DNA from: Bolinopsis microptera
Taxonomy: Eukaryota > Ctenophora > Tentaculata > Lobata > Bolinopsidae
Assembly: GCF_026151205.1 (NCBI RefSeq)
Contig: NC_087083.1
Span: forward strand, 14,872,280 to 14,936,279
Direction: 5' to 3'
DNA: 64,000 nt
The first letter of the stretch is position 1; every line of letters starts with the position of its first letter. The position numbers were made by a program, and so were the translations under genes. Below the pieces are notes generated by a model. It did no database searches. It was not told the DNA's origin and saw only the letters and a list, made by a program, of their open reading frames with translations. Positions 25,901 through 31,900 of this stretch are shown one piece after another.

Positions 25901-28900
25901 TGGGTGAGTGTGGGGACTGTAGTTCTGAGATTTCATTGGTGGTACTGGATATTGAAATCATGCAATCTGATTGGTCAATCAGAGTCATGTTCAAAAAGAA
26001 CCTGACGGCCGCTCACATTAGATAGTAAATTACGGGACAAATATTTATCTAAACATTCTGTAATTTAAAGAATCTCTCTGTAAAGTTTGTTCAAGAAGAG
26101 AAGTAGGTATTGCACGTTTTGAGTAAACTTGGTAGTATTTCATTCTTATCTTACTCTCACTTTATTGAGGTATCATGTTATCGTTTACTTATGGACAGTG
26201 CTTTAATTACACGAACAAATATTGAACAATTAATCAATTTATACGGTTATCTGAGTCTACAAAAATGGTCGCAAAATTAATTATTGCAGTTATAAACACT
26301 AATCTAATTAAGTTTTATATCATTTTGTTTTATCTACTTAATAATATCTATAATGTACATCTTATCATGTTTCATCTCATTTTGAAGAGGTATTGAATAC
26401 AATGATAATCAGTAAACTGCGCAGTAGTACAGTGCACTTCTCATCCCATATAGCTGATACGATGTTGTAAATTAATATGCGTATATTTACACTTCCTAAT
26501 CCCTAGAGGATAAGGCAATACTAATACATGTAATAACTACAAGTTAGGTTATGGTACAGGGGAGGGGTGTACAGCACCAGTTTGTCGGACACGTGGTCAC
26601 GTGTCCGACACGTGGTCACCGAGTTGAGGAGTGTTATAAAGTTGTTGTACTCTATAGTTGATAGATAACGTCACGCGATATTTGTGACGTCACGTGATGA
26701 TTTTGTTATAATGTAATAAAAGTTCTCTGTGTTCAATTTCAGATTTTGAAGATTTGACAGTCATTGCTCTTGATAGAGTTACATGGAAGTTTAGTTTTAT
26801 CTTTTGAGACAGCTGCCAATAAAGTTCTTAGGATTGTTGTTATAATAATTAATAATATTTATAATAATAATAATTTAATAAAGTACCTTCTCTCCAATCT
26901 CAGTATTGTCTCCATTAGGAAGTATCTGAAGGTCAGTCTCCAGGGCACAGCTCGTTATTACTTCCTTGTAATAACACTTGTTCCAAGGAGCCCCAAATAG
27001 GATGTTGTTTTTTAGGGAGTCGTTTAGAACCCAGGATACTTGGGGTACGTAGCTTACTGAACCCTGCCAATAGGGAACATTATAATAACCCAGGATATTT
27101 GGGGTACGTAGCTAACTGAACCCTGCCAATAGGGAACATTATAATTACCCAGGATATTTGGGGTACGTATCTTACTGAACCCTGCCAATAGGGAACATTA
27201 TAATAACCCAGGATATTTGGGGTACGTAGCTTACTGAACCCTGCCAATAGGGAACATTATAATAACCCAGGATATTTGGGGTACGTAGCTTACTGACCCT
27301 GCCAATAGGGAACATTATAATAACCCAGGATATTTGGGGTACGTAGCTTACTGAACCCTGCCAATAGGGAACATTATAATAACCCAGGATACTTGGGGTA
27401 CGTAGCTAACTGAACCCTGCCAATAGGGAACATTATAATAACCCAGGATACTTGGGGTACGTAGCTAACTGAACCCTGCCAATAGGGAACATTATAATAA
27501 CCCAGGATACTTGGGGTACGTAGCTAACTGAACCCTGCCAATAGGGAACATTATAATAACCCAGGATACTTGGGGTACGTAGCTTACTGAACCCTGCCAA
27601 TAGGGAACATTATAATAACCCAGGATACTTGGGGTACGTAGCTAACTGAACCCTGCCGATAGGGAACATTATAATAACCCAGGATACTTGGGGTACGTAG
27701 CTTACTGAACCCTGCCAATAGGGAACATTATAATAACCCAGGATACTTGGGGTACGTAGCTTACTGAACCCTGCCAATAGGGAACATTATAATAACCCAG
27801 GATACTTGGGGTACGTAGCTTACTGAACCCTGCCAATAGGGAACATTATAATAACCCAGGATACTTGGGGTACGTAGCTTACTGACCCTGCCAATAGGGA
27901 ACATTATAATAACCCATGATATTTGAGGTACGTAGCTTACTGAACCCTGCCAATAGGGAACATTATAATAACCCAGGATATTTGGGGTACGTAGCTTACT
28001 CAACCCTGCCAATAGGGAACATTATAATAACCCAGGATACTTGGGGTACGTAGCTTACTGAACCCTGCCAATAGGGAACATTATAATAACCCAGGATACT
28101 TGGAATACGTAGCTTACTGAACCCTGCCAATAGGGAACATTATAATAACCCAGGATACTTGGGGTGCGTAGCTAACTGAACCCTGCCAATAGGGAACATT
28201 ATAATAACCCAGGATATTTGGGGTACGTAGCTTACTGAACCCTGCCAATAGGGAACATTATAATAACCCAGGATACTTGGGGTACGTAGCTTACTGAACC
28301 CTGCCAATAGGGAACATTATAATAACCCAGGATACTTGGGGTACGTAGCTAACTGAACACTGCCAATAAGGAACATTATAATAACCCAGGATACTTGGGG
28401 TACGTAGCTTACTGAACCCTGCCAATAGGGAACATTATAATAACCCAGGATACTTGGGGTACGTAGCTTACTGAACCCTGCCAATAGGGAACATTATAAT
28501 AACCCAGGATACTTGGGGTACGTAGCTTACTGACCCTGCCAATAGGGAACATTATAATAACCCATGATATTTGAGGTACGTAGCTTACTGAACCCTGCCA
28601 ATAGGGAACATTATAATAACCCAGGATATTTGGGGTACGTAGCTTACTCAACCCTGCCAATAGGGAACATTATAATAACCCAGGATACTTGGGGTACGTA
28701 GCTTACTGAACCCTGCCAATAGGGAACATTATAATAACCCAGGATACTTGGAATACGTAGCTTACTGAACCCTGCCAATAGGGAACATTATAATAACCCA
28801 GGATACTTGGGGTGCGTAGCTAACTGAACCCTGCCAATAGGGAACATTATAATAACCCAGGATATTTGGGGTACGTAGCTTACTGAACCCTGCCAATAGG

Positions 28901-31900
28901 GAACATTATAATAACCCAGGATACTTGGGGTACGTAGCTTACTGAACCCTGCCAATAGGGAACATTATAATAACCCAGGATACTTGGGGTACGTAGCTAA
29001 CTGAACACTGCCAATAAGGAACATTATAATAACCCAGGATACTTGGGGTACGTAGCTTACTGAACCCTGCCAATAGGGAACATTATAATAACCCAGGATA
29101 CTTGGGGTACGTAGCTTACTGAACCCTGCCAATAGGGAACATTATAATAACCCAGGATACTTGGGGTACGTAGCTAACTGAACCCTGCCAATAGGGAACA
29201 TTATAATAACCCAGGATACTTGGGGTACGTAGCTAACTGAACCCTGCCAATAGGGAACATTATAATAACCCAGGATACTTGGGGTACGTAGCTAACTGAA
29301 CCCTGCCAATAGGGAACATTATAATAACCCAGGATACTTGGGGTACGTAGCTAACTGAACCCTGCCAATAGGGAACATTATAATAACCCAGGATACTTGG
29401 GGTACGTAGCTAACTGAACCCTGCCAATAGGGAACATTATAATAACCCAGGATACTTGGGGTACGTAGCTAACTGAACCCTGCCAATAGGGAACATTATA
29501 ATAACCCAGGATACTTGGGGTACGTAGCTAACTGAACCCTGCCAATAGGGAACATTATAATAACCCAGGATACTTGGGGTACGTAGCTAACTGAACCCTG
29601 CCAATAGGGAACATTATAATAACCCAGGATATTTGGGGTACGTAGCTAACTGAACCCTGCCAATAGGGAACATTATAATAACCCAGGATACTTGGGGTAC
29701 GTAGCTAACTGAACCCTGCCAATAGGGAACATTATAATAACCCAGGATATTTGGGGTACGTAGCTAACTGAACCCTGCCAATAGGGAACATTAGAATAAC
29801 CCAGGATACTTGGGGTACGTAGCTTACTGAACCCTGCCAATAGGGAACATTATAATAACCCAGGATACTTGGGGTACGTAGCTAACTGAACCCTGCCAAT
29901 AGGGAACATTATAATAACCCAGGATACTTGGGGTACGTAGCTAACTGAACCCTGCCAATAGGGAACATTATAATAACCCAGGATACTTGGGGTACGTAGC
30001 TAACTGAACCCTGCCAATAGGGAACATTATAATAACCCAGGATACTTGGGGTACGTAGCTAACTGAACCCTGCCAATAGGGAACATTATAATAACCCAGG
30101 ATACTTGGGGTACGTAGCTTACTGAACCCTGCCAATAGGGAACATTATAATAACCCAGGATACTTGGGGTACGTAGCTAACTGAACCCTGCCAATAGGGA
30201 ACATTATAATAACCCAGGAAACTTGGGGTACGTAGCTAACTGAACCCTGCCAATAGGGAACATTATAATAACCCAGGATACTTGGGGTACGTAGCTAACT
30301 GAACCCTGCCAATAGGGAACTTTATATTAACCCAGGAAACTTGGGGTACGTAGCTAACTGAACCCTGCCAATAGGGAACATTATAATAACCCAGGATACT
30401 TGGGGTACGTAGCTAACTGAACCCTGCCAATAGGGAACATTATAATAACCCAGGATACTTGGGGTACGTAGCTTACTGAACCCTGCCAATAGGGAACATT
30501 ATAATAACCCAAGATATTTGGGGTACGTGGCTTACAGTCCGTTAATAACTCACATTCAAGTAGACTTCACCCTCCATTTTGTCCATTTCTCCCAACATGG
30601 CTGAAACCAGGGAAGATTTGCCGGATCCTACAGCTCCCACTATAGCTACTAGTTTCCCCCGCGGGATTGTAACGTTTATACTGAGATTGTAGGATTTGAT
30701 TAGTAACTTATATGAAACTTCAACTATATAATTACGACCAAGACGACACAACATAAACATAATACACATATAACACGTGACTACACATAACACGTGACTA
30801 CATATAACACGTGACTACACATAACACGTGACTACACATAACACGTGACTACACATAACACGTGACTACACATAACACGTGACTACACATAACACGTGAC
30901 TACACATAACACGTGACTACACATAACACGTGACTACACATAACACGTGACTACACATAACACGTGACTACACATAACACGTGACTACACATAACACGTG
31001 ACTACACATACCACGTGACTACACATAACACGTGACTACACATAACACGTGACTGCACATAACACGTGACTACACATAACACGTGACTACACATAACACG
31101 TGACTACACATAACACGTGACTACACATAACACGTGACTACACATAACACGTGACTACACATAACACGTGACTACACATAACACGTGACTACACATACCA
31201 CGTGACTACACATAACACGTGACTACACATAACACGTGACTGCACATAACACGTGACTGCTCACTTATCCAAGGTGACAGTGTTGACTTCATCCTTCATG
31301 TCCCAGGAGAACTTGCCCCCTTTGATCTGTGCAGCAGTAGGAGAGTCCGCCTCCCCACTTATAACAGCATCCTCCTCCAGCTCCGTCAGGTTCAGGAATG
31401 TCTTGATACGAACTATACTTACTCTTGCCTGTATTTAATGGCAAACCTTTTATTATAAGTTTTTATTTTAAATTCTTTAATAAATCTGCTGTTATTAGCG
31501 AGGAAGAACATATCTGTGGACTTAAATTATTTAAAGTTAGAACTTAATTTTCAATAATTGGTTTTACAAGATACTAGTATCTGAACCTGTATTAGTTGTG
31601 TGATCATGTTAGGCAACATAACTAGAGGAAAGCGGAGAATGTTGAAGAGCGTGAGAGAAACAAAAGCCTTCTCTGATGTCAGATTGTTACCTAGCAGACT
31701 GTAACACAGGAAGGATAGGAGAGACACCTGCAGTGATATTTACTTTACTTTAGATCATGTGATCAGATCACGTGTTTCATTACATTCCATACTTGTTAGT
31801 TGTGATATAATGGTATTCCATTCCATACTTGTTAGTTGTGATATAATGGTATTCCATTCCATACTTGTTAGTTGTGATATAATGGTATTCCATTCCATAC

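What the first reader, a model, noticed from the sequence alone, without database searches (positions are those of the whole stretch)
27064..30524. 59-bp array that repeats the ABCC NBD1 exon start together with its 3' splice site
Each of about 58 units contains 23 nt of intron end with CAG and the first 36 nt of the exon ([12 protein letters not shown]). The real exon is preceded by dozens of perfect or near-perfect copies of its own acceptor and coding start. Units also contain CAGTAAGC/CAGTTAGC, which resembles a donor, so mini-exons of about 6 nt could in principle form. Use of an outer acceptor would insert intron sequence inside the ATPase domain.
Basis: seen in the sequence. Interest (0 to 1): 0.93.

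Follow-up and report, generated by a model that had tools for sequence, protein, structure and literature searches.

The report
Intron built from duplicated splice sites
In a comb jelly's drug-transporter gene, one intron is almost entirely tandem copies of its own end plus the start of the next exon; it resembles the lancelet "mirage" repeats and offers a natural test of how splicing picks one site among dozens of identical ones.

Summary
The genome is the ctenophore Bolinopsis microptera. Window 27028-30535 (gene on the minus strand) holds a 59-bp array of 58 outer units plus the real exon start. Each unit is 23 nt of intron end with CAG and 36 nt of exon ([12 protein letters not shown]). 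15 of 58 outer units are identical over the unit; 53 outer sites repeat the exact 23-nt acceptor window.

It is not alone. In this MRP1-like gene, arrays cross a splice junction at 4 of 15 supported introns (three acceptors, one donor); all four recur at a second copy of the locus with other lengths. A rough model of randomly seeded tandem duplications expects about 3.9.

All 387 exact-tag outer sites tested here give a premature stop. The NCBI protein model uses the exon-proximal site at all four.

These fit "mirage" minisatellites, reported in lancelet genes. I read them as neutral expansions tolerated because splicing picks the exon-proximal site; that step is inferred, no RNA was read.

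Caution: the window copy is a gene fragment on a contig between two 100-N gaps, probably an unpurged haplotig.

The parts
27028..30535 (-). 59-bp array (59.5 copies) duplicating the intron-6 acceptor and first 36 nt of the next exon
30554..30680 (-). upstream exon (Walker A part of NBD1); donor AAT|GTGAGT
27064..30553 (-). intron 6, 3490 nt, all but 18 nt covered by the array
26887..27063 (-). real exon (177 nt) starting [12 protein letters not shown]; its acceptor is the innermost copy
32057..32489 (-). 40-bp array (10.8 copies) crossing the intron-2 acceptor by 23 nt of exon (exon starts 32079)
16733..20988 (-). 20-bp array (212.7 copies) crossing the intron-11 donor by 9 nt of exon (exon ends 20980; AAAAG|GTATGTTA)
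9626..15492 (-). 42-bp array (139.6 copies) crossing the intron-12 acceptor by 18 nt of exon (exon starts 9643)
7894..33317 (-). 16 exons of the MRP1-like gene fragment (581 aa, identical to P0001 residues 1-581)
2626..2725 (.). 100-N run, lower end of the contig that carries the gene fragment
34290..34389 (.). 100-N run, upper end of that contig

Best explanation
A boundary-spanning minisatellite of the kind called a 'mirage' in lancelets, in intron 6 of a ctenophore MRP1/ABCC1-like gene. A tandem duplication happened to span the intron-exon border, then grew by slippage or unequal exchange until it filled the intron. It is tolerated because splicing joins the exon-proximal acceptor, most likely by exon definition: the outer acceptors are locally identical to the real one, so the choice must rest on what lies more than 36 nt into the exon, such as its own donor, or on position. 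Shown: anatomy, two copies with different lengths, three further junction-crossing arrays in the gene, premature stops from the outer sites tested. Inferred: neutral origin, exon-proximal splicing in the animal, exon definition.
For: Unit anatomy and identity. Junction-crossing arrays at 4 of 15 introns, acceptor and donor side, in both copies: 59.5 vs 33, 213 vs 59, 140 vs 80 and 11 vs 15 units. Expected crossings under random seeding 3.95 and 3.91, observed 4 (rough). Coding constraint between the copies: dN/dS 0.069, 8 non-synonymous and 32 synonymous differences. Exon-proximal sites at all four junctions reproduce residues 1-581 of the NCBI model exactly; exon-proximal means the last-transcribed site for the three acceptors and the first for the donor, so 'first transcribed wins' does not fit both. 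Lancelet mirages duplicate splice sites and are reported not to disturb splicing (passages).
Against: No RNA was read; P0001 is a predicted model whose support I did not see. In the second copy the intron-2 acceptor window has 0 identical outer sites (13 with 1-2 mismatches), and 2 of its 32 intron-6 units fail the GGCAG test, so decoys there are not all equivalent. The seeding model uses today's non-array intron length as the ancestral length and a hand-picked list of 16 arrays per copy, partly carried over from the window copy to the second copy. Other genes sampled were array-poor, so the pattern is regional or gene-specific so far.
Confidence: 0.7

Rival explanations
1. The decoy sites have a regulatory role: outer sites capture part of the splicing, give premature-stop transcripts that are degraded, and array length tunes expression of the transporter.
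For: 53 identical outer acceptor windows here; all 57 exact-tag outer acceptors and all 187 exact-tag outer donors of intron 11 give a stop; lengths differ between the copies.
Against: No sign of selection on the units: the number of junction-crossing arrays fits random seeding, and the array is not kept at one length. No RNA evidence either way.
Confidence: 0.12
2. Stepwise or mini-exon splicing: each unit acts as a 6-nt exon (GGTTCA, Gly-Ser) between 53-nt introns, so the intron is removed in pieces and adds Gly-Ser pairs.
For: An in-frame GGTTCA followed by GTAAGC or GTTAGC occurs in 50 of the 58 mini-exon matches listed.
Against: Shortest mapped introns are 158 and 149 nt; the NCBI model has no Gly-Ser insert; the junction AAT|GGTTCA does not rebuild a donor.
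Confidence: 0.03
3. The intron itself was created by tandem duplication of coding sequence, the array being its remains (the intron-gain model proposed for mirages).
For: The array reaches to 18 nt of the donor; the donor GTGAGTTAT matches the exon's GTAAGCTAC at 6 of 9 positions (counted by eye); the ABCC paralogue on C5 has its intron at another position, about 5 codons upstream by my alignment.
Against: The 6 of 9 match is what a donor consensus gives anyway; exon 6 shows no leftover duplicate residues (alignment); no other ctenophore could be compared.
Confidence: 0.1
4. Assembly artefact: the array does not exist in the animal or its length is invented.
For: The window copy is on a contig between two N gaps, and an exact 806-bp self-match at offset 648 inside the array (27722-28527 vs 28370-29175) could be a misassembly.
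Against: The second locus has the same unit, 32.8 copies, with its own variants and an insertion, in 80 kb without N. Existence is therefore safe; exact lengths are not.
Confidence: 0.05

Closest known systems
'Mirages' of lancelet genes (Adh3, globins BflGb6 and BflGb9, PGBD5, TnC)
   Same: Minisatellite-like tandem duplications across an intron-exon border, acceptor or donor side, units containing the splice signal, length differing between haplotypes, regular splicing reported (passages of PMC3087553; PMC3902484).
   Different: Here a ctenophore, not a chordate; up to 58-212 units against 3 and 6 units in the two BflGb6 haplotypes; four in one gene; normal splicing not shown.
Human IFI6 (6-16) minisatellite with multiple splice donors (Turri et al. 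1995)
   Same: A minisatellite that multiplies a splice site at an exon edge.
   Different: Donor side, and downstream copies are used, giving several mRNAs (passages of PMC4526556; of Turri et al. only the title was seen, in that reference list).
Intron gain by tandem duplication; internal tandem repeats at exon-intron borders of human segmental duplications
   Same: Tandem duplication spanning splice signals (PMC2812944 passages; PMC4974935 search listing and start of abstract only).
   Different: No evidence here that the array made a new intron.

Membership tests
Lancelet-type mirage | tandem, minisatellite-like units that span an intron-exon border | tested here: met
   23 nt intron + 36 nt exon per unit; border crossed by 36 nt
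Lancelet-type mirage | units carry the splice signal | tested here: met
   GGCAG in 59 of 59 units here, 30 of 32 in the second copy
Lancelet-type mirage | length instability between haplotypes or copies | tested here: met
   59.5 vs 32.8 copies; whether the two copies are alleles is not settled
Lancelet-type mirage | does not disturb regular splicing | not testable with these tools
   only a protein model (P0001) that uses the exon-proximal site
Lancelet-type mirage | somatic instability (reported for Adh3) | not testable with these tools
   needs reads from one animal
Recursive or mini-exon splicing | acceptor followed closely by a donor in each unit | tested here: met
   GTAAGC, GTTAGC or GTAAGA 5-6 nt after the acceptor in 59 of 59 units
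Recursive or mini-exon splicing | introns of the implied size (53 nt) exist in the gene | tested here: not met
   minimum 158 nt (window copy) and 149 nt (second copy) over 15 introns each
MRP1/ABCC1-like transporter | NBD1 with Walker A and ABC signature, closest to MRP1 | tested here: met
   MRP1 chains are the best matches in the PDB search, E 4.8e-102 for the first; PF00005
MRP1/ABCC1-like transporter | complete gene with second transmembrane domain and NBD2 | tested here: not met
   window copy is a fragment; NBD2-like exons were found downstream of the second copy only

The most novel reading that the evidence does not exclude
Arrays of identical decoy splice sites act as a length-tunable brake on splicing: competition by dozens to hundreds of copies lowers productive splicing of the transporter, so hypervariable array alleles set its expression.
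Probability: 0.07. Interest if true: 0.8.

Novelty: new member of a known kind. Interest (0 to 1): 0.5.

Why it matters
It takes a phenomenon described in lancelets to a ctenophore, at much larger copy number and with acceptor- and donor-side cases in one gene. Because the decoys are locally identical to the real site, the locus separates local splice-site strength from exon context and from order of transcription, using long-read RNA that a published paper says was made for this species (PMC10232365 section 13). It also bears on intron gain by tandem duplication and on annotation of repeat-rich introns.

Tried and rejected
Chance or simple low-complexity origin: rejected, 58 near-identical outer units that continue into the exon. 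Donor homologous to the exon's GTAAGC as proof of intron gain: 6 of 9 matches, what a donor consensus gives; the second copy, which at first looked better aligned, is better explained by a 14-nt deletion (by eye). Targeted seeding at splice sites: not needed, 4 observed against about 3.9 expected. Selection on acceptors inside the array: no signal either way, AG never mutated but few variants are expected at two columns. Mirage candidates in other genes: a 72-bp x3 unit holding TTTCAG in L038 is not followed by a recognisable exon; a 21-bp array in L035 overlaps the matched stretch by 7 nt but the splice site was not resolved; an 11-bp array on C5 abuts an acceptor without crossing it by TRF. 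Finding the annotated protein of the second copy: not among the 120 listed hits. Literature for mirages in ctenophores: one irrelevant paper for ctenophore + intron + minisatellite; other searches. Amphioxus as host: rejected by P0001.

Full report
What is there. The window lies on contig C12 of a 265-Mb genome. A protein search with the spliced exons returned P0001, 'multidrug resistance-associated protein 1-like [Bolinopsis microptera]', on a contig of 15,202,596 bases, the length of C12, so the host is a ctenophore. The gene runs on the minus strand. TRF gives a 59-bp array, 59.5 copies, 97% matches, 27028-30535. Read 5' to 3' in the gene, each unit is attataatgttccctattggcag followed by 36 nt coding [12 protein letters not shown]; 59 units including the real exon, 15 of 58 outer ones identical over the unit, GGCAG in 59 of 59. 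Within 20 intron + 3 exon nt, 53 outer acceptors are identical to the real one and 5 differ by 1-2 nt. The array covers all but 18 of the 3490 nt of the intron.

The gene. Joined NBD1 exons match MRP1 over the whole NBD1, without an insert at this junction (E 4.8e-102), and Pfam ABC_tran. Mapping P0001 gives 16 exons and 15 supported GT-AG introns; their joined translation equals P0001 residues 1-581 with 0 differences. The sixteenth intron, to P0001's last 27 residues, is doubtful: in the second copy the gene continues to another exon.

A second copy. The array also occurs 507 kb away on C12, inside a region homologous to window 2726-33487. There it has 32.8 copies; 8 of 31 outer units equal the exon unit, GGCAG is in 30 of 32 units, and the unit nearest the donor is split by an insertion. 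All 15 introns recur with GT-AG. Coding differences: 32 synonymous, 8 non-synonymous, dS 0.087, dN/dS 0.069, so both have evolved under constraint. The window copy sits between two 100-N runs (2626-2725, 34290-34389), and its contig matches the second copy over nearly its whole length; the second copy's 80-kb stretch has no N and has upstream exons and NBD2-like matches downstream, at C12:14341003-14364559 (which scored 76 of 99 candidates). The simplest reading is an unpurged haplotig; the assembly paper reports wtdbg assembly with Purge Haplotigs and a 1n k-mer size of about 254 Mb (passages). Against it stands the high dS (a relative, Hormiphora, has 2% SNP heterozygosity, passage); a partial paralogue is the alternative.

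Not one array but several. With TRF score >= 80, arrays cross a splice junction at introns 2 (acceptor, 40 bp, 23 nt of exon), 6 (acceptor, 59 bp, 36 nt), 11 (donor, 20 bp, 9 nt) and 12 (acceptor, 42 bp, 18 nt; 21 nt in the second copy), in both copies, with 11 vs 15, 60 vs 33, 213 vs 59 and 140 vs 80 units. Intron 11 alone holds 190 further exact copies of the 9-nt donor AAGGTATGT, and intron 12 122 exact acceptor windows; intron 2 has 7. In the second copy the numbers are 19 (intron 6), 50 (intron 11), 71 (intron 12) and 0 (intron 2; 13 with 1-2 mismatches). Other arrays abut splice sites without crossing, for example 7 nt after the intron-5 donor and 4 nt before the intron-9 acceptor, in both copies. 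In the second copy a fifth array (34 bp) overlaps a downstream exon start by 6 nt.

Why so many. If a tandem duplication of unit u starts at random around an intron whose non-array length is n, it crosses a junction with probability 2(u-1)/(n+u-1). Summed over 16 arrays this gives 3.95 for the window copy and 3.91 for the second copy, against 4 observed. The list was made by hand, the second copy's list reuses several window arrays, and n is only a proxy, so this is a rough check. It says that neither targeting nor special function is needed, and that such crossings are removed little if at all by selection.

What splicing must do. All 387 exact-tag outer sites in the window copy (8, 57, 187, 135) and all 167 in the second copy lead to a stop when used singly (sites with variant tags were not tried). 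The NCBI model uses the exon-proximal site at all four junctions. Since the outer sites match the real one through 36 nt of exon, local strength cannot decide; exon context must. Exon-proximal means last transcribed for acceptors and first transcribed for the donor, which fits exon definition better than a first-come rule. This step is inference: no RNA was read, and the support behind P0001 was not seen. Mini-exons would need 53-nt introns, against a minimum of 158 and 149 nt in the two copies.

How general. The C12 regions fetched are 30% and 36% TRF arrays; a C5 ABCC gene region (25 kb) is 3.5% and 12 myosin loci (39.9 kb, several from the same genes) 3.3%. No clear junction-crossing array was found in those controls, with two unresolved candidates. 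Both C12 copies lie within 0.9 Mb of the contig end, so a subtelomeric effect is possible but untested.

What is known. [quoted passage not shown] BflGb6 duplicates the end of an intron and the start of exon 2, with 6 and 3 units in two haplotypes, and splicing is reported normal (PMC3087553, passages). PMC3902484 lists Adh, TnC, globin and PGBD5 cases (passages). Human IFI6 has a minisatellite whose copies serve as donors (PMC4526556, passages). I found no report in ctenophores: ctenophore + intron + minisatellite gave one irrelevant paper, and the ctenophore genome papers were seen only as passages and one section. I file this as a new member of the mirage kind, in a ctenophore and at extreme copy number; the defining splicing behaviour is untested.

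Noticed in passing
27722-29175: An 806-bp exact self-match at offset 648 (11 units) inside the array: recent block duplication or misassembly.
   Followed up: partly
6356-6436: P0001's last 27 residues map here, but the second copy continues to a different exon, so this annotated exon is probably wrong and caused by the contig end.
   Followed up: partly
2726-2900: The contig end runs into a degraded 34-bp array; in the second copy that array overlaps an exon start by 6 nt.
   Followed up: partly
37128-41398: Two long minus-strand ORFs (1001 and 505 aa) that look like a non-LTR retrotransposon; recognised by eye, no family search was run.
   Followed up: no
50910-61299 and 62057-64000: Long arrays of a 184-bp satellite, apparently in opposite orientations.
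   Followed up: no
30766-31258, 33128-33236, 36751-36841, 41663-42381, 43722-43779, 48741-49045: Unrelated arrays whose units share CACGTGA or TCACGTGA-like cores.
   Followed up: no
46251-46809: 36- and 72-bp repeats inside a 553-aa open frame (45955-47616, minus), a repetitive acidic protein region.
   Followed up: no
L038:2836-3058: A 72-bp x3 array whose unit holds TTCTTTCAG, near a myosin match; no exon recognised after it.
   Followed up: partly
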